Below are positions 38,257-55,991 of a stretch of DNA of 64,000 bases, piece after piece. This DNA is from Catillopecten margaritatus gill symbiont (GTDB lineage: Bacteria; Pseudomonadota; Gammaproteobacteria; PS1; Pseudothioglobaceae). Made by a program: the position numbers and the translations under genes. The DNA is taken from NCBI GenBank assembly GCA_037956075.1, contig CP138327.1, positions 868,001-932,000 on the forward strand. The letters run 5' to 3'. The notes beneath the pieces were generated by a model. That model saw only the letters and a program-made list of their open reading frames with translations, had not been told where the DNA came from and did no database searches. Each line of letters opens with the position of its first letter. Position 1 is the first letter of the stretch.

Positions 38257-39412
38257 TGTAAATTCGCATCATAAGTGCACAACTAAGTTTAATTAGCATT
38301 AGTGTATTTTGCTTGGCCTTTATGTCAAGCCAAAAGCAAAATACACCAAGCCTTTGAATAAAATCAGAGGTCGGTCAATCTATAATGATTGATTTGCTTA
38401 AACGGAGCTGAACACTATGTACAAGCAACTAACCTCTGAAGAGAGGTATTATATCGCGATTGGAATTAAACAAGGCATGTCTAAGAATAAAATCGCACAA
38501 AACCTTAATCGCAGCCACTCTACCATTATTAGAGAGATTGCCCGTAACACGGGCAAGCGAGGCTATCGATACAATCAGGCTAATGGCTTTGCGCAGCAAA
38601 GACATCAAGCCAAAGATAAGTTTGTTAAATTAACCATTGAGTGTAAACGCTTGATTGACAATTGTCTAAAACTTGATTGGTCGCCTGAACAAGTCTGTGG
38701 TTGGCTTAATGCCAACAATGTCATTCAACTTCACCATGAGAGCATCTATCGTTATTTGCTCAAAGATAAAGCAGATGGTGGCTTGTTATATCAACACCTC
38801 AGACATCAGGGTAAGCCTTATAGAAAGCGTTATGGTTACGCGCATAATCGCACAGGCATTCCCAATCGTATTGATATTGACCAGCGCCCTGAGGCAGTTA
38901 ATAATCGCACAGTATTTGGACATTGGGAGGCGGACACTATTATTGGTAAAGCCCACAAAGGTGCCATCGTAACGCTGGATGAGCGCATATCAAAGCTTAG
39001 ACTGGCGTATCCGCTTAATAGCAAACACAAAGACGGTGTTAGTGTTGCCATCAATACCTTGCTTCAGCCTATTAAGGGTTTTGTACATTCAATTACCTAT
39101 GACAATGGCAAGGAGTTCGCAGGACATGAGAAAATTAATAAAACAATCCATTGTAAGAGTTACTTTGCTAAGCCTTACCATAGCTGGGAACGTGGACAAA
39201 ACGAAAACGCTAACGGCTTATTACGGCAATACTTCCCAAAGACAATATCTTTGGTAAATATTGCTTACAATGAAGTTAAAATAGCAGTGAATAAATTAAA
39301 TTCTAGACCGAGAAAATGTCTAGGATTTAAAACACCTTACCAGGTGTTTTTTGAGATGACGGGTGTTGATGCTCGTCAATTGGGAGTTGTGCACTTATGA
39401 GTCGAATCCACC
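38257..39412 (+). mobile_element. IS30-family insertion sequence, copy 1 (intact)
   Basis: 1156 bp. Terminal inverted repeats read ATTCGCATCATAAGTGCACAACT (left, from 38262) and, reversed, ATTCGACTCATAAGTGCACAACT (right), differing at two bases. A stem-loop, GTGTATTTTGCTT (38302-38314) with AAGCAAAATACAC (38334-38346), lies between the left end and the transposase start and may shield the gene from read-through. Confidence 0.9.
38417..39400 (+). CDS. IS30-family transposase, copy 1
   Basis: 327 residues. The N-terminal helix-turn-helix (LTSEERYYIAIGIKQGMSKNKIAQNLNRSHSTIIREI) is the IS30 signature, and the RNaseH-fold catalytic residues are in HWEADTIIG, ITYDNGKEF and RGQNENANGLLRQYFPK (D, D, E). 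The C-terminus RPRKCLGFKTPYQVF is typical. The stop is formed within the right inverted repeat. Differs from copy 3 by one residue (Y/H in ERYYIA). Confidence 0.95.
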   Translation: MYKQLTSEERYYIAIGIKQGMSKNKIAQNLNRSHSTIIREIARNTGKRGYRYNQANGFAQQRHQAKDKFVKLTIECKRLIDNCLKLDWSPEQVCGWLNANNVIQLHHESIYRYLLKDKADGGLLYQHLRHQGKPYRKRYGYAHNRTGIPNRIDIDQRPEAVNNRTVFGHWEADTIIGKAHKGAIVTLDERISKLRLAYPLNSKHKDGVSVAINTLLQPIKGFVHSITYDNGKEFAGHEKINKTIHCKSYFAKPYHSWERGQNENANGLLRQYFPKTISLVNIAYNEVKIAVNKLNSRPRKCLGFKTPYQVFFEMTGVDARQLGVVHL

Positions 39413-39952: not shown

Positions 39953-42900
39953 TTAATCCTTTAGACAGCGAACACTAAACCCGTACGCCTTATTGTCGGT
40001 ACTGCGGTACACCGTGGCGTAACTGGTGTTCAGGTCGCGCCTGTAGGCATTACTACCTGACTCAGTACTACTCCACAAGTCCGTGTCGACGCCACGATTG
40101 TAGAAACTACCATTGGTATTGCGGTAGCCCGCTAACTTAGCCTCGAAGCCACTAGAGCCACCTACTTTTAGTTTTGTTCCTTCATCAGTACCACGCCAAC
40201 CCGTTGCTTCTTGATTAGCAACACTCATACCTAATTGACCTTCTAAGACTTTCCAATCAGCATCAGATGGCAAACTCCAGCCACTAGGACAAACGTTCAT
40301 CGCTGCATCCCAAGTGTAGTAATAACCGTCTTCATCGCTTGTATCTCCAGAACCATTAGTACCCACATAAGCATTCCAATAATCCGTACCTAGAACATTA
40401 TTTGTAGTAGGCACTAATGAAACATTAGATGCACTCCAAGTTTGAGTGCCGATGGTTATGCTGGCTAGTTCTACAACAACGTTAGTGACATTAACCGTAA
40501 TATTAGCACTTTGTGACGTGGTGTCAGCTTTGGTGATCTGCACTGCTAGCGTGTAGCTAGTCGTGGTTTCAAAATCAAGCTGGTTGACATCGGCCACGGT
40601 GATTTGACCACTGTTGCTAATCGCAAAGGCGGTGTTAGTGTTACCGCTGGTAATGCTAAAGCCAGTTGGACTACCTGTGGTTACAAGAACTGCACCCACA
40701 TTAGTTGCATTGGCAGAGTTCTCAGCAATAGAACGAGTTTGGGCACTGATCGAAACAGCACTACCCTCATTAACGTTAGTGACATTAACCGTAATATTAG
40801 CACTTTGTGACGTGGTGTCAGCTTTGGTGATCTGCACTGCTAGCGTATAGCTCTTCGTGGTTTCAAAATCAAGCTGGTTGGCATCGGCCACGGTGATTTG
40901 ACCACTGTTGCTAATCGCAAAGGCGGTGTTAGTGTTACCGCTGGTAATGCTAAAGCCAGTTGGACTACCTGTGGTTACAAGAACTGCACCCACATTAGTT
41001 GCATTGGCAGAGTTCTCAGCAATAGAACGAGTTTGGGCACTGATCGAAGCACTACCCTCATTAACGTTAGTGACATTAACCGTAATATTAGCACTTTGTG
41101 ACGTGGTGTCAGCTTTGGTGATCTGCACTGCTAGCGTGTAGCTAGTCGTGGTTTCAAAATCAAGCTGGTTGGCATCGGCCACGGTGATTTGACCACTGTT
41201 GCTAATCGCAAAGGCGGTGTTAGTGTTACCGCTGGTAATGCTAAAGCCAGTTGGACTACCTGTGGTTACAAGAACTGCACCCACATTAGTTGCATTGGCA
41301 GAGTTCTCAGCAATAGAACGAGTTTGGGCACTGATCGAAACAGCACTACCCTCATTAACGTTAGTGACATTAACCGTAATATTAGCACTTTGTGACGTGG
41401 TGTCAGCTTTGGTGATCTGCACTGCTAGCGTGTAGCTAGTCGTGGTTTCAAAATCAAGCTGGTTGACATCGGCCACGGTGATTTGACCACTGTTGCTAAT
41501 CGCAAAGGCGGTGTTAGTGTTACCGCTGGTAATGCTAAAGCCAGTTGGACTACCTGTGGTTACAAGAACTGCACCCACATTAGTTGCATTGGCAGAGTTC
41601 TCAGCAATAGAACGAGTTTGGGCACTGATCGAAACAGCACTACCCTCATTAACGTTAGTGACATTAACCGTAATATTAGCACTTTGTGACGTGGTGTCAG
41701 CTTTGGTGATCTGCACTGCTAGCGTGTAGCTAGTCGTGGTTTCAAAATCAAGCTGGTTGACATCGGCCACGGTGATTTGACCACTGTTGCTAATCGCAAA
41801 GGCGGTGTTAGTGTTACCGCTGGTAATGCTAAAGCCAGTTGGACTACCTGTGGTTACAAGAACTGCACCCACATTAGTTGCATTGGCAGAGTTCTCAGCA
41901 ATAGAACGAGTTTGGGCACTGATCGAAACAGCACTACCCTCATTAACGTTAGTGACATTAACCGTAATATTAGCACTTTGTGACGTGGTGTCAGCTTTGG
42001 TGATCTGCACTGCTAGCGTGTAGCTAGTCGTGGTTTCAAAATCAAGCTGGTTGGCATCGGCCACGGTGATTTGACCACTGTTGCTAATCGCAAAGGCGGT
42101 GTTAGTGTTACCGCTGGTAATGCTAAAGCCAGTTGGACTACCTGTGGTTACAAGAACTGCACCCACATTAGTTGTATTGGCAGAGTTCTCAGCAATAGAA
42201 CGAGTTTGGGCACTGATCGAAACAGCACTACCCTCATTAACGTTAGTGACATTAACCGTAATATTAGCACTTTGTGACGTGGTGTCAGCTTTGGTGATCT
42301 GCACTGCTAGCGTGTAGCTAGTCGTGGTTTCAAAATCAAGCTGGTTGACATCGGCCACGGTGATTTGACCACTGTTGCTAATCGCAAAGGCGGTGTTAGT
42401 GTTACCGCTGGTAATGCTAAAGCCAGTTGGACTACCTGTGGTTACAAGAACTGCACCCACATTAGTTGCATTGGCAGAGTTCTCAGCAATAGAACGAGTT
42501 TGGGCACTGATCGAAACAGCACTACCCTCATTAACGTTAGTGACATTAACCGTAATATTAGCACTTTGTGACGTGGTGTCAGCTTTGGTGATCTGCACTG
42601 CTAGCGTGTAGCTAGTCGTGGTTTCAAAATCAAGCTGGTTGACATCGGCCACGGTGATTTGACCACTGTTGCTAATCGCAAAGGCGGTGTTAGTGTTACC
42701 GCTGGTAATGCTAAAGCCAGTTGGACTACCTGTGGTTACAAGAACTGCACCCACATTAGTTGCATTGGCAGAGTTCTCAGCAATAGAACGAGTTTGGGCA
42801 CTGATCGAAACAGCACTACCCTCATTAACGTTAGTGACATTAACCGTAATATTAGCACTTTGTGACGTGGTGTCAGCTTTGGTGATCTGCACTGCTAGCG

Positions 42901-43489
42901 TGTAGCTAGTCGTGGTTTCAAAATCAAGCTGGTTGACATCGGCCACGGTGATTTGACCACTGTTGCTAATCGCAAAGGCGGTGTTAGTGTTACCGCTGGT
43001 AATGCTAAAGCCAGTTGGACTACCTGTGGTTACAAGAACTGCACCCACATTAGTTGCATTGGCAGAGTTCTCAGCAATAGAACGAGTTTGGGCACTGATC
43101 GAAGCACTACCCTCATTAACGTTAGTGACATTAACCGTAATATTAGCACTTTGTGACGTGGTGTCAGCTTTGGTGATCTGCACTGCTAGCGTGTAGCTAG
43201 TCGTGGTTTCAAAATCAAGCTGGTTGACATCGGCCACGGTGATTTGACCACTGTTGCTAATCGCAAAGGCGGTGTTAGTGTTACCGCTGGTAATGCTAAA
43301 GCCAGTTGGACTACCTGTGGTTACAAGAACTGCACCCACATTAGTTGCATTGGCAGAGTTCTCAGCAATAGAACGAGTTTGGGCACTGATCGAAAAGCAC
43401 TACCCTCATTAACGTTAGTGACATTAACCGTAATATTAGCACTTTGTGACGTGGTGTCAGCTTTGGTGATCTGCACTGCTAGCGTGTAG
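39953..43489 (-). pseudogene. Adhesin A, C-terminal part (cadherin-like repeats and FISUMP tip)
   Basis: Continues the gene 43490-46795 after an internal break. The open frame from 43339 gives 1128 residues: about ten 98-residue cadherin-like repeats (ISAQTRSIAENSANATNVG ... LDFETTTSYTLAVQITKAD), then a ~175-residue C-terminal domain starting ASITIGTQTWSASNVSL and ending GFSVRCLKD, the Fibrobacter-type FISUMP (C-type-lectin-like) fold. The break is a 38-bp deletion at the TAGCTAG/GTGATTTG junction near 43492 that creates a TAG, plus a 1-bp deletion near 43397; together they are -39, so the frame is regained. It may be an assembly error in the repeats. Confidence 0.8.
39957..40102 (-). other. 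Candidate DGR variable repeat (VR) in adhesin A
   Basis: The last ~145 bases of the coding sequence encode the FISUMP tip. Compared with adhesin B (offset 9724) there are nine substitutions between 39997 and 40099, in codons AAT/GAT, GTC/GAC, GAC/AAC, GAC/TAC, AGG/AGA, GAC/CAC, TAC/AGC and GAC/AAC (A/B). Every one can derive from an adenine in a template codon AAT, AAC, GAC or AGA. The 40 bases from 39996 to the stop are invariant, as an initiation (IMH) segment would be. Confidence 0.75.
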
Positions 43490-44560
43490 CTAGGTGATTT
43501 GACCACTGTCGCTAATCGCAAAGGCGGTGTTAGTGTTACCGCTGGTAATGCTAAAGCCAGTTGGACTACCTGTGGTTACAAGAACTGCACCCACATTAGT
43601 TGCATTGGCAGAGTTCTCAGCAATAGAACGAGTTTGGGCACTGATCGAAACAGCACTACCCTCATTAACGTCAGTGACATTAACCGTAATATTAGCACTT
43701 TGTGACGTGGTGTTAGCTTTGGTGATCTGCACTGCTAGCGTAGCTGTCTTCGTGGTTTCAAAATCAAGCTGGTTGACATCGGCCACGGTGATTTGACCAC
43801 TGTTGCTAATCGCAAAGGCGGTGTTAGTGTTACCGCTGGTAATGCTAAAGCCAGTTGGACTACCTGTGGTTACAAGAACTGCACCCACATTAGTTGCATT
43901 GGCAGAGTTCTCAGCAATAGAACGAGTTTGGGCACTGATCGAAACAGCACTACCCTCATTAACGTTAGTGACATTAACCGTAATATTAGCACTTTGTGAC
44001 GTGGTGTCAGCTTTGGTGATCTGCACTGCTAGCGTATAGCTCTTCGTGGTTTCAAAATCAAGCTGGTTGGCATCGGCCACGGTGATTTGACCACTGTTGC
44101 TAATCGCAAAGGCGGTGTTAGTGTTACCGCTGGTAATGCTAAAGCCAGTTGGACTACCTGTGGTTACAAGAACTGCACCCACATTAGTTGCATTGGCAGA
44201 GTTCTCAGCAATAGAACGAGTTTGGGCACTGATCGAAGCACTACCCTCATTAACGTTAGTGACATTAACCGTAATATTAGCACTTTGTGACGTGGTGTCA
44301 GCTTTGGTGATCTGCACTGCTAGCGTGTAGTCAGTGACATTAACCGTAATATTAGCTAGCGTATAGCTCTTCGTGGTTTCAAAATCAAGCTGGTTGACAT
44401 CGGCCACGGTGATTTGACCACTGTTGCTAATCGCAAAGGCGGTGTTAGTGTTACCGCTGGTAATGCTAAAGCCAGTTGGACTACCTGTGGTTACAAGAAC
44501 TGCACCCACATTAGTTGCATTGGCAGAGTTCTCAGCAATAGAGCGAGTTTGGGCACTGAT
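40480..44560 (-). repeat. Tandem 294-bp repeats in adhesin A (about 14 copies)
   Basis: Each unit encodes 98 residues of a cadherin-like fold. Units are nearly identical at the nucleotide level; variants are GSAVSI versus GSASI (a 3-bp length change), DVNQ/DANQ, FETTT/FETTK and NATN/NTTN. One short unit near 44330-44360 has a duplicated ANITVNVTDYT segment. This uniformity implies recent homogenisation or expansion. Confidence 0.9.
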
Positions 44561-46795
44561 GCTAAAATCCACTACGGTAGCAATCACATCAGCAGAAGTC
44601 ACACTAGCATAATCAGCACCTGTAATAGTATGACTAATGGTTACAGTCTCATCAGTTGCATTAACATCAGCTACACCAGTGACTGTAACTGTTTGCGCTG
44701 TGCTCCAGTTAGCTGTGGTAAAGGTCATTACACCTGATACGGAGGCAGCACCGGTATCAGCACTCACTGGGGTGATCGTAACACTACCAGTTGGTTGCGT
44801 GTTAAGGACTACTGTGTAAGTTGTTACACCGTTTTCATCAAGAGTTACTGCGGTTTTATTTAAAATAACACTAGGGGTGGTTGTTACAATATCTACATTG
44901 CCTGCATTAGTGTTTCCAGTATCTGATGTTGGGTTGTTAGCACCAGAGCCTGTTTTAAAATTGTTTATAGCTTGATTAAGATTAAGAGTTTTTCCTTGTC
45001 CATCTGCAATACCATCAATATCACCATCAGCCATATCAACAACAAGCTCTTGGATAGTTTCATTGGCGTGGATATTATCACCACCATTATTTGCAGTTGA
45101 CTGTGTATCATCATGTCCTGCATTCTCAGACATTTGTGAGACTGCTGCTAGCACAGTACCAAATTTACCCGCATCATCATTAGCGGCAGTGATAGTGTTA
45201 AGATCCGTTGGGATGGTGGCGGTAAAATCAACGCCACTTATACCAAATGCTGTTGCAATTTGTGTATTTTTAGTGGTTATATCATTAGCTAAAGTACCAG
45301 CATTAGCTAATTGATAAGCAATTTCAGATAAAGGTGAGGCTAGAAGAATTAAGTCTCCTGTGCCTGAATAAATTTTTGCCGCTCTGAGCACTGGAGAGCT
45401 AGTAGTGGTCACACCTGTGGCTTCATCGATATAGGTACCAATGGCATTACAAGAGCTAGAAATTAGTCCAGTAGGTAGAACAACATTTGACAGTGTTACA
45501 CTGCCATCAGCGCCTGTTACACCAGAGCCATTGGCAATAGCAACATTTGATGCATTGTAAAGTGTACAGGTAGAGCCTACTGTAGGAGCGTTGTATTCAC
45601 CCAAAACCACGCTAACACCATTTAAGAGTTTTTCAATACGGATTTTGTTAGATCTTTCAACAAAGTCAAGATCGGTTAGGGTAACAATATTTGAGTTAGC
45701 AAAAGCTTGATCAGAGACTTTAAAATTAGTTAATGCTTCGCCATCTTTAAATGGCAGTTGTGCGCTTAGGCGTGCATAGCTTGCACGCTCAGCTGTGTTT
45801 GAGTTTTCAGTACCTATTTCTAGCGTAGTAGAAGGATTAAGCTCTATTTCAACACCTAAAATAGTACCTTTAATATTGTCGCCAACTTTGGCATCCCAAT
45901 AATAGTGCGTGCCTTTGATTTTTGCCCAAGATAGATAAGGTACTTGACCCGTTAGTTTAATGTCATGTCCTGCTAGTGGCTCTTCAGTGTAATCACCAAT
46001 AACTTTCTTATCTGACAATGGGTAGTATTTATTAATATTGGCACTAAAGTTAGCTCTTTGGTATTCCAAACCTAGCGATGCACGCTTGTGCTTAGACTCG
46101 GTTTCATAATCAGTGAATAGATTAATACCAGCAATAGACTGACCACCTTCAAGTAGGTAACGCTGTCCAAGGCCTAAATTAATAGTGTCACGGCGCTCAC
46201 CATGGTTTTCACCAGAGTTAATTTGAGCTTGGATAAAAGTTAGCTCTGTTGAATCTGTATTAAGCTCAGTCAATGGTTGAATGGTTTTAAGACTATATGT
46301 TGGGTTATTAGACTCTAATTTATGCACAGAGATTTCAGTTCTACCGTTGCCAATACTATTAGCAAGTTCATTGGCTTTTTGATTAATAAAGCCTTCGGTT
46401 TTATTAATCACTGTGTTGTTGGCTTTATTTTTTAAATTATCAGTAATTTTTTTACCAAGCTGATTGGCATTGTCAGAATCTGTACCGCCCAAGGCATTAC
46501 GAACAGAAGAGCCAATCTCTTTAAGGAGTGTATCAATTGTGTTTTCTTCTTTAACAGCTACTTGAGTATTGTTATCACTGTACTGTTGTCCAAGGTTAAG
46601 ATAAGCTTCTTTGTCAAACTGGTTAATCTCACCACCTGAGGTAACGTTAAGTGATAGAGTCAAAGCGCCAAAAGCTAAAAAATGCTTAAGCCTGCTTAGC
46701 GCTCTAGAATGTGCCCCACCCACCCACGCAACATGGGTAATTAGGTTAGTGGCATTATAATTAGTTGAACAGGCGTTTTTTAATAGTGTTTTCAT
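43490..46795 (-). CDS. Adhesin A, N-terminal part: inverse autotransporter (intimin/invasin family), prematurely stopped
   Basis: 1101 residues. An extended signal region (RALSRLKHFLAFGALTLSLNVTSG) is followed by a helical segment, then the inverse-autotransporter beta-barrel (INLGLGQRYLLEGGQSIAGINLFTDYETESKHKRASLGLEYQ and YYPLSDKKVIGDYTEEPLAGHDIKLTGQVPY), Ig-like regions, a DUF-like Calx/EGF-free spacer and about four cadherin-like repeats. It ends at a TAG made by the 38-bp deletion. The ATG at 46795 directly abuts the TTAATCG array and has no Shine-Dalgarno. The barrel should sit in the outer membrane with the repeats outside. Confidence 0.88.
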   Translation of the reverse strand: MKTLLKNACSTNYNATNLITHVAWVGGAHSRALSRLKHFLAFGALTLSLNVTSGGEINQFDKEAYLNLGQQYSDNNTQVAVKEENTIDTLLKEIGSSVRNALGGTDSDNANQLGKKITDNLKNKANNTVINKTEGFINQKANELANSIGNGRTEISVHKLESNNPTYSLKTIQPLTELNTDSTELTFIQAQINSGENHGERRDTINLGLGQRYLLEGGQSIAGINLFTDYETESKHKRASLGLEYQRANFSANINKYYPLSDKKVIGDYTEEPLAGHDIKLTGQVPYLSWAKIKGTHYYWDAKVGDNIKGTILGVEIELNPSTTLEIGTENSNTAERASYARLSAQLPFKDGEALTNFKVSDQAFANSNIVTLTDLDFVERSNKIRIEKLLNGVSVVLGEYNAPTVGSTCTLYNASNVAIANGSGVTGADGSVTLSNVVLPTGLISSSCNAIGTYIDEATGVTTTSSPVLRAAKIYSGTGDLILLASPLSEIAYQLANAGTLANDITTKNTQIATAFGISGVDFTATIPTDLNTITAANDDAGKFGTVLAAVSQMSENAGHDDTQSTANNGGDNIHANETIQELVVDMADGDIDGIADGQGKTLNLNQAINNFKTGSGANNPTSDTGNTNAGNVDIVTTTPSVILNKTAVTLDENGVTTYTVVLNTQPTGSVTITPVSADTGAASVSGVMTFTTANWSTAQTVTVTGVADVNATDETVTISHTITGADYASVTSADVIATVVDFSISAQTRSIAENSANATNVGAVLVTTGSPTGFSITSGNTNTAFAISNSGQITVADVNQLDFETTKSYTLANITVNVTDYTLAVQITKADTTSQSANITVNVTNVNEGSASISAQTRSIAENSANATNVGAVLVTTGSPTGFSITSGNTNTAFAISNSGQITVADANQLDFETTKSYTLAVQITKADTTSQSANITVNVTNVNEGSAVSISAQTRSIAENSANATNVGAVLVTTGSPTGFSITSGNTNTAFAISNSGQITVADVNQLDFETTKTATLAVQITKANTTSQSANITVNVTDVNEGSAVSISAQTRSIAENSANATNVGAVLVTTGSPTGFSITSGNTNTAFAISDSGQIT

Positions 46796-46886
46796 CGTTA
46801 ATCGTTAATCGTTAATCGTTAATCGTTAATCGTTAATCGTTAATCGTTAATCGTTAATCGTTAATCGTTAATCGTTAATCGTTAAT
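46796..46886 (-). repeat. Heptanucleotide tandem repeat at the adhesin A start (13 units)
   Basis: CGTTAAT is repeated exactly 13 times (91 bp) on the plus strand, immediately upstream of the adhesin ATG on the minus strand. Because 7 is not a multiple of 3 and every frame through the array meets TAA within 21 bases, variation in number would change the 5' untranslated region, not the protein. Module B has 8 units. Confidence 0.95.
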
Positions 46887-47279
46887 AAAATTATGTTGTG
46901 TATTTTACCGTAACTATTTAACTATTTAACTATTTTTTTTGCTTTTAGACTAGAAAGCCTAATAAAAATCTTTATAAGCAAGGATTATGGAAAAAAATAG
47001 GAAGATAAAGAATAGAGCAAGCCATAAGAGTGTCAATATATTTACAACTTGAAACATTTTCTACTGAAGCGGTAGTCAAACATTCGCCTTATGTTGAGCT
47101 ATGCTTTTTAGCTCTTTTGTGTCTATATTTATTTAAATAAATGCCATCTTCTAGGGTGTTATAATGAAAAAAATATTTTTTTTAAATACTATACAAGTAT
47201 GATTAATGACTGTCCAATCCCCTCTCCTAACATGGAGCTTGAAAAGCAAGCTTCTAATAATTAATTAAAAGAATAGATT
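46887..47279. other. Divergent intergenic region of module A
   Basis: 393 bases between the adhesin repeat array and the + strand gene at 47280. It must contain the promoters of both. TTATAAT at ~47158 could be a + strand -10. A short hairpin AGCTTG-AAAAG-CAAGCT lies at ~47235. No gene was seen. It is nearly identical to 55992-56384. Confidence 0.5.
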
Positions 47280-47640
47280 ATGATAACAATTAACGGCATG
47301 AATAAAGATGAGTTAAAAACCCTGCTAAATGAAACTGTTGACAAAATCAACAAAATTGATACGGCTCATAGTAACATTTTCTTACAACATACTGAGGCTC
47401 AAAACTTAATAAACGGTTTGAATACTGGAGACCTTCAAGGCAAAGTTAATAACGTAAACAATTTTAACACCTCAGTAGAAGACAATAAAAACACCATAGC
47501 AGTCAACCTGACAGATTTCACCTCAACCTACACCAACTTTAAACAGAAAAAAAATGAGTTGTTTGGCAATGAAGATAACGAAAATGACAATGGAAGTATA
47601 GCTGAAATTACAAATAAGCTCAATAAACAGCAAGAGCAGC
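47280..47640 (+). pseudogene. Truncated copy of the unknown coiled-coil membrane protein
   Basis: The first ~120 codons (MITINGMNKDELKTLLNETVDKINKIDTAHSNIF ...) are the same as the intact gene at 56385-57266. At 47641 the sequence changes abruptly and 30 foreign codons follow to a stop at 47732. The junction marks the end of the duplicated module and the beginning of the avd segment. Confidence 0.88.
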
Positions 47641-47785
47641 AAGCAATTAATAAATGGCCTTCATTAAGTTTTGAGCTTCGTATTCAGCGCAAGAATAACA
47701 GTATTGCCGCCTTTATTTTTCTACGTGATTGAATAATTTAAGTCTCGAACAGCTTTTCAAGTAATAATTCTCTATCTTGTGGCAT
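47641..47785 (-). other. Degenerate reading frame after avd (possible start of a reverse transcriptase gene)
   Basis: An ATG at 47785 overlaps the avd stop by 14 bases (MPQDRELLLEKLFET-stop). Further on, in shifted frames, come RRKIKAAILLFLR and AEYEAQNLMKAI. The spacing of a basic RRK-like motif, F and an E-x-x-x-L helix is reminiscent of DGR reverse transcriptase N-termini, but this is weak. The segment ends at the 47640/47641 junction. No RT catalytic domain is present in the window. Confidence 0.25.
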
Positions 47786-48005
47786 TAAGTGAGCTTTTAT
47801 GCCAGGCAGTTAGTTGTTTTGAGACGCTTTCACATTTGTCATTCAATCCAGCAAATTTTTTAATATTAACCTGTTTAAGATCACGCAACAATCTCAATAA
47901 AACCCGTATCACTTCAATATTTTCTCTAGCTTTTACAATATGCTTAACTTTGTCTTTTCTGCTATTAGCCCGATAAATATTAATAATCATTTCAATGGTT
48001 TCTTT
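47772..48005 (-). pseudogene. avd: Avd-like DGR accessory protein (four-helix bundle), 5' end cut off by IS30
   Basis: About 78 native residues: KKETIEMIINIYRANSRKDK, then KARENIEVIRVLLRLLRDLKQVNIKKF, then ESVSKQLTAWHKS. This is the pattern of the PF05635/Avd four-helix-bundle family, whose DGR members bind the reverse transcriptase and are needed for mutagenic retrohoming. The upstream codons come from the inverted repeat of IS copy 2 at ~48006, so the first third of the gene is missing. It lies downstream of adhesin B on the same strand, the order target-avd found in DGRs. Four-helix-bundle relatives outside DGRs exist. Confidence 0.75.
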
Positions 48006-49136
48006 TTTAATTCGCATCATAAGTGCACTACTAAGTAATAGCATTAGTATTCCTTGTTAAACTCTTTGGTCAAGCCAAAAGCAAAATACACCAAGCCTTT
48101 GAATAAAATCAGAGGTCTCAATCCTAATACATTGATTTGCTTAAACTAGCTAAAGCCATATTTAACAGCAAAAAAATATTGAAAAAAGGCATTACATCGC
48201 GATTGGAATTAAACAAGCATGTCTAAGAATAAAATCGCTAAACAGCGAGCCACTCTACCATTATTAGAGAGATTGCCCGTAACACGGGCAAGCGAGGCTA
48301 TCGATACAATCAGGCTAATGGCTTTGCGCAGCAAAGACATCAAGCCAAAGATAAGTTTGTTAAATTAACCATTGAGTGTAAACGCTTGATTGACAATTGT
48401 CTAAAACTTGATTGGTCGCCTGAACAAGTCTGTGGTTGGCTTAATGCCAACAATGTCATTCAACTTCACCATGAGAGCATCTATCGTTATTTGCTCAAAG
48501 ATAAAGCAGATGGTGGCTTGTTATATCAACACCTCAGACATCAGGGTTCGCCTTATAGAAAGTATTATGGTTCACCGTGGCATAATCGCACAGGCATTCC
48601 CAATCGTCTTAGATATTGACCAGCTACCTGACTCAGTTACTAATCGCACAAGTTCGACATTGAGGCGCCACGATTATTGGTAAAGCCCACAAAGGTGCCA
48701 CGTACCGCTGGTATGAGCGCATATGCCCGCTTAACTGGCGCCTCCCAATAATAGCAAAAACAAAGACGGTGTTAGTGTTGCCATCAATACCTTGCTTCAG
48801 CCTATTAAGGGTTTTGTACATTCAATTACCTATGACAATGGCAAGGAGTTCGCAGGACATGAGAAAATTAATAAAACAATCCATTGTAAGAGTTACTTTG
48901 CTAAGCCTTACCATAGCTGGGAACGTGGACAAAACGAAAACGCTAACGGCTTATTACGGCAATACTTCCCAAAGACAATATCTTTGGTAAATATTGCTTA
49001 CAATGAAGTTAAAATAGCAGTGAATAAATTAAATTCTAGACCGAGAAAATGTCTAGGATTTAAAACACCTTACCAGGTGTTTTTTGAGATGACGGGTGTT
49101 GATGCTCGTCAATTGGGAGTTGTCACTTATTTTAAA
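48006..49136 (+). mobile_element. IS30-family insertion sequence, copy 2 (corrupted)
   Basis: The left inverted repeat is present (ATTCGCATCATAAGTGCACTACT from ~48009), while the right end is altered (GTTGTCACTTATTTTAAA in place of the terminal repeat). The transposase is broken: its start is missing (48150-48190), there is an internal deletion near 48240, and 48560-48750 is scrambled; open pieces are 48386-48619 and 48792-49151. Long stretches remain identical to copies 1 and 3. The scrambled part blends in words from the adhesin 3' end. Confidence 0.85.
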
Positions 49137-49151
49137 ATACAACTACTTTAG
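48792..49151 (+). pseudogene. IS30 transposase C-terminal fragment (copy 2)
   Basis: Residues corresponding to the last third of the intact transposase (LLQPIKGFVHSITYDNGKEF ... TPYQVFFEMTGVDARQLGVV) with the second catalytic D and the E. The upstream catalytic D region is destroyed, so the product cannot be active. Confidence 0.85.
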
Positions 49152-49548
49152 CTTTTTTTTTGCTATCTTTATTGTAAATTAAAACCTGCCTTACATTCGT
49201 AACCTGAGGCAATTCCTCACGTCAACAAGTGGCTATCAAACCCAAAACCCAACAAAAATTATTAACTTGTTAAGTTCGGGGGGTTTTGCCTCTACAGTAA
49301 ATATAATTTGTAAAGTTTCACCTACTCATCACCAAATGTAAGATTCTTTTATCCTCATTTTTTTAATGATACTGCTAGTCTTAACCATTAGTGCCATTAA
49401 CAAATGAGAGAATGTTTGGATTTATAAACCTCACTTGTTTAATCCTTAAACTAAACAACGCCGGGCTGATTAACTCATTTATTCTCAATGCTGTAATGTT
49501 AAATGCCCTTCCTTAAATGTCTTAACTCCTTGTTATGTAATAAAAAAC
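49137..49548. other. Noncoding spacer between IS copy 2 and adhesin B
   Basis: 412 bases matching 39413-39824. No gene seen. The adhesin B terminator (49539-49568) and hairpin array (49573-49655) follow. Confidence 0.5.
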
Positions 49549-49568
49549 CACCCAAGCAAGCTTGGGTG
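49539..49568 (-). terminator. Terminator of adhesin B
   Basis: Same stem as in module A: CACCCAAGC/GCTTGGGTG at 49549-49568 with plus-strand A's at 49542-49547, i.e. a T tract in the minus-strand transcript. Confidence 0.85.
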
Positions 49569-49572
49569 ATGA

Positions 49573-49655
49573 ATACCCCGCAAGGGGGTATAAATACCCA
49601 GCCATTCGGCTGTGTTTAGTTGCACTTTTAGTGCAACTTATGCCAGCTTCGCTGG
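49573..49655. repeat. Hairpin array downstream of adhesin B
   Basis: Exact copy of the four-hairpin array at 39849-39931, including the GCGAAGC mini-hairpin (49643-49655) 22 bases after the stop codon. Confidence 0.7.
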
Positions 49656-49676
49656 TCGAAGTGCCAAAGTGTCGAA

Positions 49677-52600
49677 TTAATCCTTTAGACAGCGAACACT
49701 AAACCCGTACGCCTTATTGTTGGTACTGCGGTACACCGTGGCGCTACTGGTGTTCAGGTGGCGTCTGTAGGCATTACTACCTGACTCAGTACTACTCCAC
49801 AAGTACGTGTTGTCGCCACGATCGTAGAAACTACCATTGGTATTGCGGTAGCCCGCTAACTTAGCCTCGAAGCCACTAGAGCCACCTACTTTTAGTTTTG
49901 TTCCTTCATCAGTACCACGCCAACCCGTTGCTTCTTGATTAGCAACACTCATACCTAATTGACCTTCTAAGACTTTCCAATCAGCATCAGATGGCAAACT
50001 CCAGCCACTAGGACAAACGTTCATCGCTGCATCCCAAGTGTAGTAATAACCGTCTTCATCGCTTGTATCTCCAGAACCATTAGTACCCACATAAGCATTC
50101 CAATAATCCGTACCTAGAACATTATTTGTAGTAGGCACTAATGAAACATTAGATGCACTCCAAGTTTGAGTGCCGATGGTTATGCTGGCTAGTTCTACAA
50201 CATCTGTGACATTAACCGTAATATTAGCACTTTGTGACGTGGTGTCAGCTTTGGTGATCTGCACTGCTAGCGTGTAGCTAGTCGTGGTTTCAAAATCAAG
50301 CTGGTTGACATCGGCCACGGTGATTTGACCACTGTTGCTAATCGCAAAGGCGGTGTTAGTGTTACCGCTGGTAATGCTAAAGCCAGTTGGACTACCTGTG
50401 GTTACAAGAACTGCACCCACATTAGTTGCATTGGCAGAGTTCTCAGCAATAGAACGAGTTTGGGCACTGATCGAAACAGCACTACCCTCATTAACGTTAG
50501 TGACATTAACCGTAATATTAGCACTTTGTGACGTGGTGTCAGCTTTGGTGATCTGCACTGCTAGCGTGTAGCTAGTCGTGGTTTCAAAATCAAGCTGGTT
50601 GGCATCGGCCACGGTGATTTGACCACTGTTGCTAATCGCAAAGGCGGTGTTAGTGTTACCGCTGGTAATGCTAAAGCCAGTTGGACTACCTGTGGTTACA
50701 AGAACTGCACCCACATTAGTTGCATTGGCAGAGTTCTCAGCAATAGAACGAGTTTGGGCACTGATCGAAACAGCACTACCCTCATTAACGTTAGTGACAT
50801 TAACCGTAATATTAGCACTTTGTGACGTGGTGTCAGCTTTGGTGATCTGCACTGCTAGCGTGTAGCTAGTCGTGGTTTCAAAATCAAGCTGGTTGACATC
50901 GGCCACGGTGATTTGACCACTGTTGCTAATCGCAAAGGCGGTGTTAGTGTTACCGCTGGTAATGCTAAAGCCAGTTGGACTACCTGTGGTTACAAGAACT
51001 GCACCCACATTAGTTGCATTGGCAGAGTTCTCAGCAATAGAACGAGTTTGGGCACTGATCGAAACAGCACTACCCTCATTAACGTTAGTGACATTAACCG
51101 TAATATTAGCACTTTGTGACGTGGTGTCAGCTTTGGTGATCTGCACTGCTAGCGTGTAGCTAGTCGTGGTTTCAAAATCAAGCTGGTTGACATCGGCCAC
51201 GGTGATTTGACCACTGTTGCTAATCGCAAAGGCGGTGTTAGTGTTACCGCTGGTAATGCTAAAGCCAGTTGGACTACCTGTGGTTACAAGAACTGCACCC
51301 ACATTAGTTGCATTGGCAGAGTTCTCAGCAATAGAACGAGTTTGGGCACTGATCGAAACAGCACTACCCTCATTAACGTTAGTGACATTAACCGTAATAT
51401 TAGCACTTTGTGACGTGGTGTCAGCTTTGGTGATCTGCACTGCTAGCGTGTAGCTAGTCGTGGTTTCAAAATCAAGCTGGTTGACATCGGCCACGGTGAT
51501 TTGACCACTGTTGCTAATCGCAAAGGCGGTGTTAGTGTTACCGCTGGTAATGCTAAAGCCAGTTGGACTACCTGTGGTTACAAGAACTGCACCCACATTA
51601 GTTGCATTGGCAGAGTTCTCAGCAATAGAACGAGTTTGGGCACTGATCGAAACAGCACTACCCTCATTAACGTTAGTGACATTAACCGTAATATTAGCAC
51701 TTTGTGACGTGGTGTCAGCTTTGGTGATCTGCACTGCTAGCGTGTAGCTAGTCGTGGTTTCAAAATCAAGCTGGTTGACATCGGCCACGGTGATTTGACC
51801 ACTGTTGCTAATCGCAAAGGCGGTGTTAGTGTTACCGCTGGTAATGCTAAAGCCAGTTGGACTACCTGTGGTTACAAGAACTGCACCCACATTAGTTGTA
51901 TTGGCAGAGTTCTCAGCAATAGAACGAGTTTGGGCACTGATCGAAACAGCACTACCCTCATTAACGTTAGTGACATTAACCGTAATATTAGCACTTTGTG
52001 ACGTGGTGTCAGCTTTGGTGATCTGCACTGCTAGCGTGTAGCTAGTCGTGGTTTCAAAATCAAGCTGGTTGACATCGGCCACGGTGATTTGACCACTGTT
52101 GCTAATCGCAAAGGCGGTGTTAGTGTTACCGCTGGTAATGCTAAAGCCAGTTGGACTACCTGTGGTTACAAGAACTGCACCCACATTAGTTGCATTGGCA
52201 GAGTTCTCAGCAATAGAACGAGTTTGGGCACTGATCGAAACAGCACTACCCTCATTAACGTTAGTGACATTAACCGTAATATTAGCACTTTGTGACGTGG
52301 TGTCAGCTTTGGTGATCTGCACTGCTAGCGTGTAGCTAGTCGTGGTTTCAAAATCAAGCTGGTTGACATCGGCCACGGTGATTTGACCACTGTTGCTAAT
52401 CGCAAAGGCGGTGTTAGTGTTACCGCTGGTAATGCTAAAGCCAGTTGGACTACCTGTGGTTACAAGAACTGCACCCACATTAGTTGCATTGGCAGAGTTC
52501 TCAGCAATAGAACGAGTTTGGGCACTGATCGAAACAGCACTACCCTCATTAACGTTAGTGACATTAACCGTAATATTAGCACTTTGTGACGTGGTGTCAG

Positions 52601-55600
52601 CTTTGGTGATCTGCACTGCTAGCGTGTAGCTAGTCGTGGTTTCAAAATCAAGCTGGTTGACATCGGCCACGGTGATTTGACCACTGTTGCTAATCGCAAA
52701 GGCGGTGTTAGTGTTACCGCTGGTAATGCTAAAGCCAGTTGGACTACCTGTGGTTACAAGAACTGCACCCACATTAGTTGCATTGGCAGAGTTCTCAGCA
52801 ATAGAACGAGTTTGGGCACTGATCGAAACAGCACTACCCTCATTAACGTTAGTGACATTAACCGTAATATTAGCACTTTGTGACGTGGTGTCAGCTTTGG
52901 TGATCTGCACTGCTAGCGTGTAGCTAGTCGTGGTTTCAAAATCAAGCTGGTTGACATCGGCCACGGTGATTTGACCACTGTTGCTAATCGCAAAGGCGGT
53001 GTTAGTGTTACCGCTGGTAATGCTAAAGCCAGTTGGACTACCTGTGGTTACAAGAACTGCACCCACATTAGTTGCATTGGCAGAGTTCTCAGCAATAGAA
53101 CGAGTTTGGGCACTGATCGAAACAGCACTACCCTCATTAACGTTAGTGACATTAACCGTAATATTAGCACTTTGTGACGTGGTGTCAGCTTTGGTGATCT
53201 GCACTGCTAGCGTATAGCTCTTCGTGGTTTCAAAATCAAGCTGGTTGACATCGGCCACGGTGATTTGACCACTGTTGCTAATCGCAAAGGCGGTGTTAGT
53301 GTTACCGCTGGTAATGCTAAAGCCAGTTGGACTACCTGTGGTTACAAGAACTGCACCCACATTAGTTGCATTGGCAGAGTTCTCAGCAATAGAACGAGTT
53401 TGGGCACTGATCGAAGCACTACCCTCATTAACGTTAGTGACATTAACCGTAATATTAGCACTTTGTGACGTGGTGTCAGCTTTGGTGATCTGCACTGCTA
53501 GCGTGTAGCTAGTCGTGGTTTCAAAATCAAGCTGGTTGACATCGGCCACGGTGATTTGACCACTGTTGCTAATCGCAAAGGCGGTGTTAGTGTTACCGCT
53601 GGTAATGCTAAAGCCAGTTGGACTACCTGTGGTTACAAGAACTGCACCCACATTAGTTGCATTGGCAGAGTTCTCAGCAATAGAGCGAGTTTGGGCACTG
53701 ATGCTAAAATCCACTACGGTAGCAATCATATCAGCAGAAGTCACACTAGCATAATCAGCACCTGTAATAGTATGACTAATGGTTACAGTCTCATCAGTTG
53801 CATTAACATCAGCTACACCAGTGACTGTAACTGTTTGCGCTGTGCTCCAGTTAGCTGTGGTAAAGGTCATTACACCTGATACGGAGGCAGCACCGGTATC
53901 AGCACTCACTGGGGTGATCGTAACACTACCAGTTGGTTGCGTGTTAAGGACTACTGTGTAAGTTGTTACACCGTTTTCATCAAGAGTTACTGCGGTTTTA
54001 TTTAAAATAACACTAGGGGTGGTTGTTACAATATCTACATTGCCTGCATTAGTGTTTCCAGTATCTGATGTTGGGTTGTTAGCACCAGAGCCTGTTTTAA
54101 AATTGTTTATAGCTTGATTAAGATTAAGAGTTTTTCCTTGTCCATCTGCAATACCATCAATATCACCATCAGCCATATCAACAACAAGCTCTTGGATAGT
54201 TTCATTGGCGTGGATATTATCACCACCATTATTTGCAGTTGACTGTGTATCATCATGTCCTGCATTCTCAGACATTTGTGAGACTGCTGCTAGCACAGTA
54301 CCAAATTTACCCGCATCATCATTAGCGGCAGTGATAGTGTTAAGATCCGTTGGGATGGTGGCGGTAAAATCAACGCCACTTATACCAAATGCTGTTGCAA
54401 TTTGTGTATTTTTAGTGGTTATATCATTAGCTAAAGTACCAGCATTAGCTAATTGATAAGCAATTTCTGATAGAGGTGAGGCTAGAAGAATTAAGTCTCC
54501 TGTGCCTGAATAAATTTTTGCCGCTCTGAGCACTGGAGAGCTAGTAGTGGTCACACCTGTGGCTTCATCGATATAGGTACCAATGGCATTACAAGAGCTA
54601 GAAATTAGTCCAGTAGGTAGAACAACATTTGACAGTGTTACACTGCCATCAGCGCCTGTTACACCAGAGCCATTGGCAATAGCAACATTTGATGCATTGT
54701 AAAGTGTACAGGTAGAGCCTACTGTAGGAGCGTTGTATTCACCCAAAACCACGCTAACACCATTTAAGAGTTTTTCAATACGGATTTTGTTAGATCTTTC
54801 AACAAAGTCAAGATCGGTTAGGGTAACAATATTTGAGTTAGCAAAAGCTTGATCAGAGACTTTAAAATTAGTTAATGCTTCGCCATCTTTAAATGGCAGT
54901 TGTGCGCTTAGGCGTGCATAGCTTGCACGCTCAGCTGTGTTTGAGTTTTCAGTACCTATTTCTAGCGTAGTAGAAGGATTAAGCTCTATTTCAACACCTA
55001 AAATAGTACCTTTAATATTGTCGCCAACTTTGGCATCCCAATAATAGTGCGTGCCTTTGATTTTTGCCCAAGATAGATAAGGTACTTGACCCGTTAGTTT
55101 AATGTCATGTCCTGCTAGTGGCTCTTCAGTGTAATCACCAATAACTTTCTTATCTGACAATGGGTAGTATTTATTAATATTGGCACTAAAGTTAGCTCTT
55201 TGGTATTCCAAACCTAGCGATGCACGCTTGTGCTTAGACTCGGTTTCATAATCAGTGAATAGATTAATACCAGCAATAGACTGACCACCTTCAAGTAGGT
55301 AACGCTGTCCAAGGCCTAAATTAATAGTGTCACGGCGCTCACCATGGTTTTCACCAGAGTTAATTTGAGCTTGGATAAAAGTTAGCTCTGTTGAATCTGT
55401 ATTAAGCTCAGTCAATGGTTGAATGGTTTTAAGACTATATGTTGGGTTATTAGACTCTAATTTATGCACAGAGATTTCAGTTCTACCGTTGCCAATACTA
55501 TTAGCAAGTTCATTGGCTTTTTGATTAATAAAGCCTTCGGTTTTATTAATCACTGTGTTGTTGGCTTTATTTTTTAAATTATCAGTAATTTTTTTACCAA

Positions 55601-55865
55601 GCTGATTGGCATTGTCAGAATCTGTACCGCCCAAGGCATTACGAACAGAAGAGCCAATCTCTTTAAGGAGTGTATCAATTGTGTTTTCTTCTTTAACAGC
55701 TACTTGAGTATTGTTATCACTGTACTGTTGTCCAAGGTTAAGATAAGCTTCTTTGTCAAACTGGTTAATCTCACCACCTGAGGTAACGTTAAGTGATAGA
55801 GTCAAAGCGCCAAAAGCTAAAAAATGCTTAAGCCTGCTTAGCGCTCTAGAATGTGCCCCACCCAC
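49677..55865 (-). CDS. Adhesin B: giant inverse autotransporter with cadherin-like repeats and FISUMP tip
   Basis: 2062 residues in one open frame from GTG 55865. Order: hydrophobic export segment (KHFLAFGALTLSL, ~13-25), helical region, inverse-autotransporter barrel (~150-400), Ig-like and Calx-type regions (for example SVILNKTAVTLDENGVTTYTVVLNTQPTGSVTI), twelve 98-residue cadherin-like repeats, then a ~175-residue FISUMP/C-type-lectin-like tip (CPSGWSLPSDADWKVLEGQLG ... GFSVRCLKD). The barrel anchors in the outer membrane and displays the tip far from the cell. The native ATG used in copy A is deleted here with 9 bases of the array, so expression from this copy may be off or start at GTG. 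Confidence 0.9.
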   Translation of the reverse strand: MGGAHSRALSRLKHFLAFGALTLSLNVTSGGEINQFDKEAYLNLGQQYSDNNTQVAVKEENTIDTLLKEIGSSVRNALGGTDSDNANQLGKKITDNLKNKANNTVINKTEGFINQKANELANSIGNGRTEISVHKLESNNPTYSLKTIQPLTELNTDSTELTFIQAQINSGENHGERRDTINLGLGQRYLLEGGQSIAGINLFTDYETESKHKRASLGLEYQRANFSANINKYYPLSDKKVIGDYTEEPLAGHDIKLTGQVPYLSWAKIKGTHYYWDAKVGDNIKGTILGVEIELNPSTTLEIGTENSNTAERASYARLSAQLPFKDGEALTNFKVSDQAFANSNIVTLTDLDFVERSNKIRIEKLLNGVSVVLGEYNAPTVGSTCTLYNASNVAIANGSGVTGADGSVTLSNVVLPTGLISSSCNAIGTYIDEATGVTTTSSPVLRAAKIYSGTGDLILLASPLSEIAYQLANAGTLANDITTKNTQIATAFGISGVDFTATIPTDLNTITAANDDAGKFGTVLAAVSQMSENAGHDDTQSTANNGGDNIHANETIQELVVDMADGDIDGIADGQGKTLNLNQAINNFKTGSGANNPTSDTGNTNAGNVDIVTTTPSVILNKTAVTLDENGVTTYTVVLNTQPTGSVTITPVSADTGAASVSGVMTFTTANWSTAQTVTVTGVADVNATDETVTISHTITGADYASVTSADMIATVVDFSISAQTRSIAENSANATNVGAVLVTTGSPTGFSITSGNTNTAFAISNSGQITVADVNQLDFETTTSYTLAVQITKADTTSQSANITVNVTNVNEGSASISAQTRSIAENSANATNVGAVLVTTGSPTGFSITSGNTNTAFAISNSGQITVADVNQLDFETTKSYTLAVQITKADTTSQSANITVNVTNVNEGSAVSISAQTRSIAENSANATNVGAVLVTTGSPTGFSITSGNTNTAFAISNSGQITVADVNQLDFETTTSYTLAVQITKADTTSQSANITVNVTNVNEGSAVSISAQTRSIAENSANATNVGAVLVTTGSPTGFSITSGNTNTAFAISNSGQITVADVNQLDFETTTSYTLAVQITKADTTSQSANITVNVTNVNEGSAVSISAQTRSIAENSANATNVGAVLVTTGSPTGFSITSGNTNTAFAISNSGQITVADVNQLDFETTTSYTLAVQITKADTTSQSANITVNVTNVNEGSAVSISAQTRSIAENSANATNVGAVLVTTGSPTGFSITSGNTNTAFAISNSGQITVADVNQLDFETTTSYTLAVQITKADTTSQSANITVNVTNVNEGSAVSISAQTRSIAENSANTTNVGAVLVTTGSPTGFSITSGNTNTAFAISNSGQITVADVNQLDFETTTSYTLAVQITKADTTSQSANITVNVTNVNEGSAVSISAQTRSIAENSANATNVGAVLVTTGSPTGFSITSGNTNTAFAISNSGQITVADVNQLDFETTTSYTLAVQITKADTTSQSANITVNVTNVNEGSAVSISAQTRSIAENSANATNVGAVLVTTGSPTGFSITSGNTNTAFAISNSGQITVADVNQLDFETTTSYTLAVQITKADTTSQSANITVNVTNVNEGSAVSISAQTRSIAENSANATNVGAVLVTTGSPTGFSITSGNTNTAFAISNSGQITVADVNQLDFETTTSYTLAVQITKADTTSQSANITVNVTNVNEGSAVSISAQTRSIAENSANATNVGAVLVTTGSPTGFSITSGNTNTAFAISNSGQITVADANQLDFETTTSYTLAVQITKADTTSQSANITVNVTNVNEGSAVSISAQTRSIAENSANATNVGAVLVTTGSPTGFSITSGNTNTAFAISNSGQITVADVNQLDFETTTSYTLAVQITKADTTSQSANITVNVTDVVELASITIGTQTWSASNVSLVPTTNNVLGTDYWNAYVGTNGSGDTSDEDGYYYTWDAAMNVCPSGWSLPSDADWKVLEGQLGMSVANQEATGWRGTDEGTKLKVGGSSGFEAKLAGYRNTNGSFYDRGDNTYLWSSTESGSNAYRRHLNTSSATVYRSTNNKAYGFSVRCLKD
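49681..49826 (-). other. Candidate DGR variable repeat (VR) in adhesin B
   Basis: Counterpart of 39957-40102. Variable codons here read GAT, GAC, AAC, TAC, AGA, CAC, AGC and AAC (coding order). Flanking sequence on both sides is identical to module A, so the change is confined to the FISUMP tip. Confidence 0.75.
50204..53702 (-). repeat. Tandem 294-bp repeats in adhesin B (12 copies)
   Basis: Twelve cadherin-like units in frame. One unit is 3 bp shorter (GSASI). Like module A, units are almost identical; the two arrays differ by two units, which shows that copy number changes. Confidence 0.92.
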
Positions 55866-55929: not shown

Positions 55930-55991
55930 GTTAATCGTTAATCGTTAATCGTTAATCGTTAATCGTTAATCGTTAATCGTTAATCGTTAAT
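55930..55991 (-). repeat. Heptanucleotide tandem repeat upstream of adhesin B (8 full units)
   Basis: Eight CGTTAAT units at 55936-55991 plus a 6-base partial unit. Compared with module A, nine bases including the ATG and the AAA codon next to it are missing at the gene-proximal edge. Confidence 0.95.

What the first reader, a model, noticed from the sequence alone, without database searches (positions are those of the whole stretch)
47772..48005. Truncated avd, the DGR accessory gene, sits between the two adhesin modules
The minus-strand frame encodes ~78 residues with the Avd four-helix-bundle pattern (KARENIEVIRVLLRLLRDLKQ, ESVSKQLTAWHKS). Its 5' end was removed by IS30 copy 2. It is downstream of adhesin B on the same strand, the standard target-avd order. 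This independently supports the VR interpretation and says the DGR locus was once complete here and was broken by IS30.
Basis: partly seen in the sequence, partly recalled or inferred. Interest (0 to 1): 0.86.

Follow-up and report, generated by a model that had tools for sequence, protein, structure and literature searches.

The report
Avd scrap inside a chimeric junction
The fragment is a genuine piece of the accessory gene of a mutation-generating retroelement, but the stretch around it is very probably a blend of two real DNA arrangements made during assembly; intact copies of the retroelement lie elsewhere in the same genome, where about 18 near-identical surface adhesins bear its mutational mark at their tips.

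Summary
Window 47772-48011(-) is Avd of a diversity-generating retroelement (bAvd PF22296, 1e-10, above cut-off). It matches intact avd genes of the same genome in one 273-nt exact block. The genome has nine intact avd copies, ten identical template repeats (TR), two intact DGR-type reverse transcriptases and 18 FISUMP adhesin ends. Both window adhesins have variable repeats that differ from the TR only at TR adenines (8/56 and 11/56; 0/127 at other bases).

The history proposed does not hold. IS30 did not cut this avd. Window 48820-47641 is an interleave of two arrangements found clean elsewhere: leader-IS30-ORF293 and leader-TR-avd-RT stub. Both sources run collinearly, and 90% of bases fall in exact blocks of 9 or more. 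Pieces of TR, of the avd 5' part and of the RT are still present. IS30 copy 2 lacks its leader-side terminal repeat. The likeliest cause is a chimeric assembly consensus, from misplaced repeat reads or from a mixed population. A second chimera of this kind lies at C1:1087.2-1088.1k. IS30 does stand where adhesin A's cassette would be.

The broader system is a new DGR member, with a clear relative in the Bathymodiolus heckerae thiotrophic symbiont.

The parts
47772..48014 (-). avd 3' two-thirds (78 codons); 48011-47739 is one exact block with intact avd/RT-start copies
48047..48180 (-). avd 5' blocks (12, 17 and 24 nt exact, in order) interleaved with IS30-end sequence
47641..47785 (-). start of the DGR RT gene (ATG at 47785), first ~14 codons clean, then interleaved with ORF293 sequence
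48546..48752 (-). TR blocks inside IS30 copy 2 (79 bases in 7 collinear blocks; 0 in a clean IS30; null maximum 27 in 2000 shuffles)
48039..49130 (-). 'IS30 copy 2': the IS30 half of the chimera, with frame breaks and no leader-side inverted repeat
49129..49682 (-). post-VR leader (hairpins), identical to the leader of TR-avd units elsewhere
49677..55865 (-). adhesin B: inverse autotransporter, cadherin-like repeats, FISUMP domain (DGR target)
49686..49868 (-). variable repeat of adhesin B: 8/56 mismatches at TR adenines, 0/127 elsewhere
39953..46795 (-). adhesin A (split in two ORFs by a frameshift near 43340-43490), FISUMP end
39962..40144 (-). variable repeat of adhesin A: 11/56 mismatches at TR adenines, 0/127 elsewhere
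38294..39412 (+). IS30 copy 1 (intact transposase ORF 38417-39400 +), directly after adhesin A's leader, where other units have TR-avd-RT
47280..47641 (+). 5' part of ORF293, 100% identical to clean units; the other edge of the chimera
46794..46886 (.). 7-bp repeat array before the start codon of adhesin A

Best explanation
The fragment is genuine DGR avd sequence, but the 'truncated avd broken by IS30' is one half of a chimeric consensus. Two arrangements that follow the adhesin leader in this genome, (1) IS30-ORF57277-ORF293 and (2) TR-avd-RT stub, were blended at this junction, by misplaced long reads or by a mixed population. The working system lies elsewhere. Shown: about 18 near-identical inverse-autotransporter adhesins with C-terminal FISUMP variable repeats, ten identical TR copies, nine intact avd copies and two intact RT genes. 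Inferred from known DGRs: TR RNA is copied by the RT-Avd complex with errors at adenines, and the cDNA replaces a VR. Inferred: targets without their own cassette, such as adhesin A, were or are diversified in trans, or were diversified before they lost it. Inferred: recombination between IS30 copies deleted TR-avd-RT from some units.
For: Avd: PF22296 above cut-off, PHROG 3206. Intact avd adjacent to RT in the same genome. RT closest solved structure is 8ub7 (5.8e-26; 8ub8 of the same series is titled DGR RNP), with the LPIGNLTSQ and YVDD motifs aligned. TR-VR mismatches: 260 at adenines, 18 elsewhere, over 19 VR stretches. Chimera: two collinear chains, R1 C1:40422-41950 and R2 C1:5915-6621; exact blocks of 9 or more cover 1068 of 1191 bases; the TR chain is 79 bases against a null maximum of 27 and 0 in a clean IS30. 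Other copies of the same joints are 99-100% identical with no gaps, while this one has 18-21 gap openings. IS30 copy 2 lacks its leader-side terminal repeat, whereas a real insertion upstream of TR at C1:25437 has both ends and a TAT duplication. A similar blend lies at C1:1087.2-1088.1k. The B. heckerae symbiont has TR-avd-RT without IS30.
Against: No reads are available, so a consensus error is inferred from pattern alone. A DP test that allowed free base-by-base switching could not separate the two-source model from shuffles; only the exact-block tests do. DGR activity today is not shown.
Confidence: 0.86

Rival explanations
1. IS30 inserted into, or deleted from, a complete TR-avd-RT cassette at this locus and left a truncated avd.
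For: One IS30 end abuts the clean avd block. IS30 truly sits between leader and TR, or in place of TR-avd-RT, in other units.
Against: TR, avd 5' and RT blocks persist in order inside and beyond IS30 copy 2; no leader-side inverted repeat; RT sequence is interleaved with ORF293 on the far side, which IS30 cannot explain.
Confidence: 0.06
2. The locus is truly polymorphic: some cells carry TR-avd-RT here, others IS30-ORF293, and the consensus blends them. (A sub-case of the best explanation; its confidence lies within that figure.)
For: The same pattern is expected; coexisting intact and transposon-broken DGR variants were seen by HiFi sequencing in Thiohalocapsa PB-PSB1 (PMC10907252).
Against: Misplacement of reads among 17-18 near-identical units explains it equally well; no population data here.
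Confidence: 0.3
3. An old pseudogene that decayed by point mutations and small indels.
For: Broken frames and many gaps against clean copies.
Against: The 'mutations' are blocks of the other arrangement in order, while flanks are 99-100% identical.
Confidence: 0.04
4. The four-helix protein is a 23S rRNA intervening-sequence protein unrelated to DGRs.
For: Best fold matches of the modelled relative are S23-family structures 2rld and a like protein, 2gsc, ahead of BPP-1 Avd 4dwl; intact relatives also hit PF05635.
Against: bAvd scores much higher; the intact gene overlaps a DGR-type RT and follows a TR with adenine-biased VRs. The two families share a fold.
Confidence: 0.02

Closest known systems
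Bordetella phage BPP-1 DGR (mtd-avd-TR-brt; Avd 4dwl, RNP 8ub7-8ube)
   Same: Avd-like four-helix protein, DGR RT with the SQ and YxDD motifs, TR/VR with adenine-specific differences, target VR at the C terminus of a receptor-binding or surface protein
   Different: Order is target-TR-avd-RT; the target is a chromosomal FISUMP inverse autotransporter; ten TR copies and about 18 targets; no similarity to a solved Avd was found by phmmer
Thiohalocapsa PB-PSB1 DGRs (PMC10907252)
   Same: Many DGR targets in one genome (9 loci, 15 targets), duplications, transposon-broken loci, proposed action in trans
   Different: There the targets are diverse putative antigen sensors in several DGR classes; here a single TR sequence and near-identical surface adhesins
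Bathymodiolus heckerae thiotrophic gill symbiont BHECKSOX, contig NZ_FQTP01000009 (L042)
   Same: TR-avd-RT in the same order, RT 90% identical, followed by a subtilase-like gene
   Different: Contig begins just upstream, so the target cannot be seen; the TR is similar but not the same

Membership tests
DGR accessory protein Avd | matches the Avd family model above its curated cut-off | tested here: met
   PF22296 42.5 bits vs 40 for the fragment, 56.4 for an intact copy; the stricter NCBIfam NF033474 equivalog cut-off (80) is not met by either (35.8; 46.2)
DGR accessory protein Avd | four-helix bundle like BPP-1 Avd | tested here: met
   Model of the B. heckerae relative (pLDDT 74) matches 4dwl at TMq 0.73-0.76 and 8ub8 at 0.72, but S23-family structures somewhat better (0.76-0.79)
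DGR accessory protein Avd | encoded next to a DGR RT and TR | tested here: met
   Intact units C1:13.3-15.0k and 60.5-62.2k. In the window only an RT start and TR blocks remain
Diversity-generating retroelement | RT of the DGR kind | tested here: met
   Best solved match is the DGR RT 8ub7 with LPIGNLTSQ and YVDD aligned; group II and retron RT matches weaker. No RT phylogeny was built
Diversity-generating retroelement | TR/VR pair with mismatches at TR adenines | tested here: met
   260 A vs 18 non-A mismatches; window VRs 19/112 A vs 0/254 other, Fisher 5e-11
Diversity-generating retroelement | C-type-lectin-like target domain | tested here: inconclusive
   FISUMP by sequence (PF09603 2.1e-29, TIGR02145 1.9e-27), but the AlphaFold model failed (pLDDT 34.5), so the fold itself was not tested
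Diversity-generating retroelement | mutagenic homing takes place | not testable with these tools
   needs reads or an experiment
IS30 insertion at avd | both terminal inverted repeats and a short target duplication | tested here: not met
   leader-side repeat absent in copy 2; both ends present with a TAT duplication at C1:25437-26590

The most novel reading that the evidence does not exclude
A Thioglobaceae-like bacterium, probably an animal symbiont, carries a two-layer surface-variation system: some 18 inverse-autotransporter adhesins whose tips are rewritten by one shared DGR template, acting in trans, and whose start codons sit behind a 7-bp repeat of 3 to 17 units that could switch expression; and the locus in the window is structurally polymorphic within the population.
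Probability: 0.4. Interest if true: 0.72.

Novelty: new member of a known kind. Interest (0 to 1): 0.5.

Why it matters
Read as assembled, the locus suggests a dead DGR; the genome instead carries two complete cassettes, and one template sequence matches the variable tips of about 18 surface adhesins that look freshly diversified. If the bacterium is an animal symbiont, as its relatives suggest, this would be a targeted mutation system aimed at the cell surface that meets host or phage. The chimeric junction is also a warning about reading gene loss from assembled repeat arrays.

Tried and rejected
A free-switching two-source DP was too permissive and gave z of only 1.6 to 1.9; it was replaced by chains of exact blocks with shuffles. 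phmmer of Avd against solved structures found no relative. AlphaFold of the FISUMP domain failed. Rfam found nothing at 47000-50300. 23S-IVP identity and plain pseudogene decay were considered and rejected. No paper in the library joins DGRs with Bathymodiolus or Thioglobus; most subscription papers and all bioRxiv preprints are missing from it.

Full report
Observation. The minus-strand ORF 47772-48044 exists and carries the quoted residues. Its last 78 residues match Pfam bAvd (1e-10, 42.5 bits, cut-off 40) and PHROG 3206 'Avd protein of DGR' (4.7e-12); the 23S intervening-sequence model is weaker and below its cut-off. So the identification of avd is right.

The rest of the genome. The window is C1:868001-932000 of a 1,542,691-base single-contig genome. 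That genome holds twelve bAvd matches, nine of them full-length and uninterrupted, two intact RTs plus nine shorter RT pieces, seven of them the same stub, and 29 Fib_succ_major matches: 18 adhesin ends, ten TR copies and one fragment of a frameshifted end. An intact unit reads FISUMP adhesin end - leader - TR - avd - RT (C1:12.2-15.0k and 59.4-62.2k). The RT's best solved match is 8ub7; 8ub8 of the same series is titled 'Diversity-generating retroelement (DGR) ribonucleoprotein reverse transcriptase'. The LPIGNLTSQ and YVDD motifs are aligned.

TR and VR. The ten TR copies are identical. Nineteen VR stretches align with the TR; they differ from it at 260 adenine positions and 18 others, and 7 of those 18 come from one divergent copy. 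Adhesin B differs at 8 of 56 adenines and adhesin A at 11 of 56, both at 0 of 127 other bases (Fisher for both together, 5e-11). Upstream of the VR the same domain differs by 1.4% on average between copies; in the VR, by 10.6%. The FISUMP domains of A and B are identical at every residue outside the VR. Copies share ancestry, so the counts are not independent events, but the bias is that of a DGR.

What is wrong with the junction. Compared with the other units, the window between leader and ORF293 is unlike any clean arrangement. It matches the IS30 arrangement (C1:39.5-42.6k) and the TR-avd-RT-stub arrangement (C1:5.3-6.9k) in alternating exact blocks; each chain runs in order, and blocks of 9 or more cover 1068 of 1191 bases, some short ones being chance matches. 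Inside the IS30 part lie seven collinear TR blocks, 79 bases in all, against 0 in a clean IS30 and at most 27 in 2000 shuffles; avd 5' blocks also exceed every shuffle (53 bases against a maximum of 36 in 2000). RT blocks chain 70 of the last 98 bases (no shuffle was run for these). IS30 copy 2 has no leader-side terminal repeat: the sequence runs from TTTTAAAATAAGTGA (the leader as it stands before a TR) straight into IS30's interior. Flanking sequence is 99-100% identical to other units without gaps, while this stretch has about 20 gap openings. No genetic event known to me interleaves two unrelated sequences while keeping both in order; a consensus built from two kinds of reads does. C1:1087.2-1088.1k shows a like blend of TR-avd-RT stub with ORF57277-ORF293. 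Whether the reads were misplaced among near-identical units or came from a mixed population cannot be told here; in Thiohalocapsa PB-PSB1, intact and transposon-broken DGR variants do coexist (PMC10907252). Which arrangement really stands at this locus is also open.

What IS30 did do. At C1:24.4-27.5k a clean IS30 lies between leader and TR, with both ends and a TAT duplication. In units such as C1:39.5-42.3k and 1429-1432k, IS30 joins that same leader position to the ORF57277 side that follows IS30 downstream of an RT unit. The simplest reading is recombination between two IS30 copies that deleted TR-avd-RT (inference). Adhesin A in this window has leader and IS30 copy 1, and no TR, avd or RT after it.

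Mechanism. From established DGR biology (PMC8144416, PMC6642488): TR RNA is reverse transcribed with errors at adenines by the RT, with Avd as its partner, and the cDNA replaces the VR. Shown here: parts, order and mismatch bias. Inferred: present activity, and trans action on the window adhesins, which lie about 500 kb or more from the nearest intact TR (from coordinates).

Relatives. The B. heckerae thiotrophic symbiont has TR-avd-RT in the same order, RT 90% identical. MnmG between that genome and this one is 82-83%, whereas a same-genus genome (MnmG 92%) has an RT only 47% identical, in a different gene order, which points to horizontal movement. bAvd matches occur in 6 of 83 genomes of the family. 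No tool named the organism; kinship to thiotrophic mussel symbionts and Ca. Thioglobus is inferred from these records.

Verdict. The avd identity and the VR interpretation stand; the truncation-by-IS30 history does not. The feature at the given coordinates is most likely a consensus artefact within an otherwise real and interesting DGR array.

Noticed in passing
46794-46886 and 55930-55991; 17 adhesin copies across C1: A 7-bp repeat (TTAACGA) directly precedes the ATG of the adhesins, 3 to 17 units in different copies; in adhesin B the ATGAAAACAC start reads ATTAACAC, so the usual start codon is lost. Possible expression switching, untested.
   Followed up: partly
43339-43490: Adhesin A is split into two ORFs by a frameshift within its cadherin-like repeats.
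   Followed up: no
G000:C1:1087200-1088100 (L031): Second interleaved junction, TR-avd-RT stub blended with ORF57277-ORF293.
   Followed up: partly
L042, L044; genomes G071, G003: The DGR RT is 90% identical across genera but 47% within the genus, against MnmG 82-83% and 92%: likely horizontal movement.
   Followed up: partly
L045 and L046 (G008, G004): avd-like genes next to other putative lectin-like target genes; this RT query found no RT in these genomes.
   Followed up: no
G000:C1:89387-89795 (L027): An avd-RT remnant with clean edges and a 7-base deletion, which looks like a real truncation, unlike the one in the window.
   Followed up: no
G000:C1:6504-6778 and six like copies: Seven RT stubs of 275 nt joined to the next adhesin's upstream region: TR-avd was amplified without a whole RT.
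   Followed up: partly
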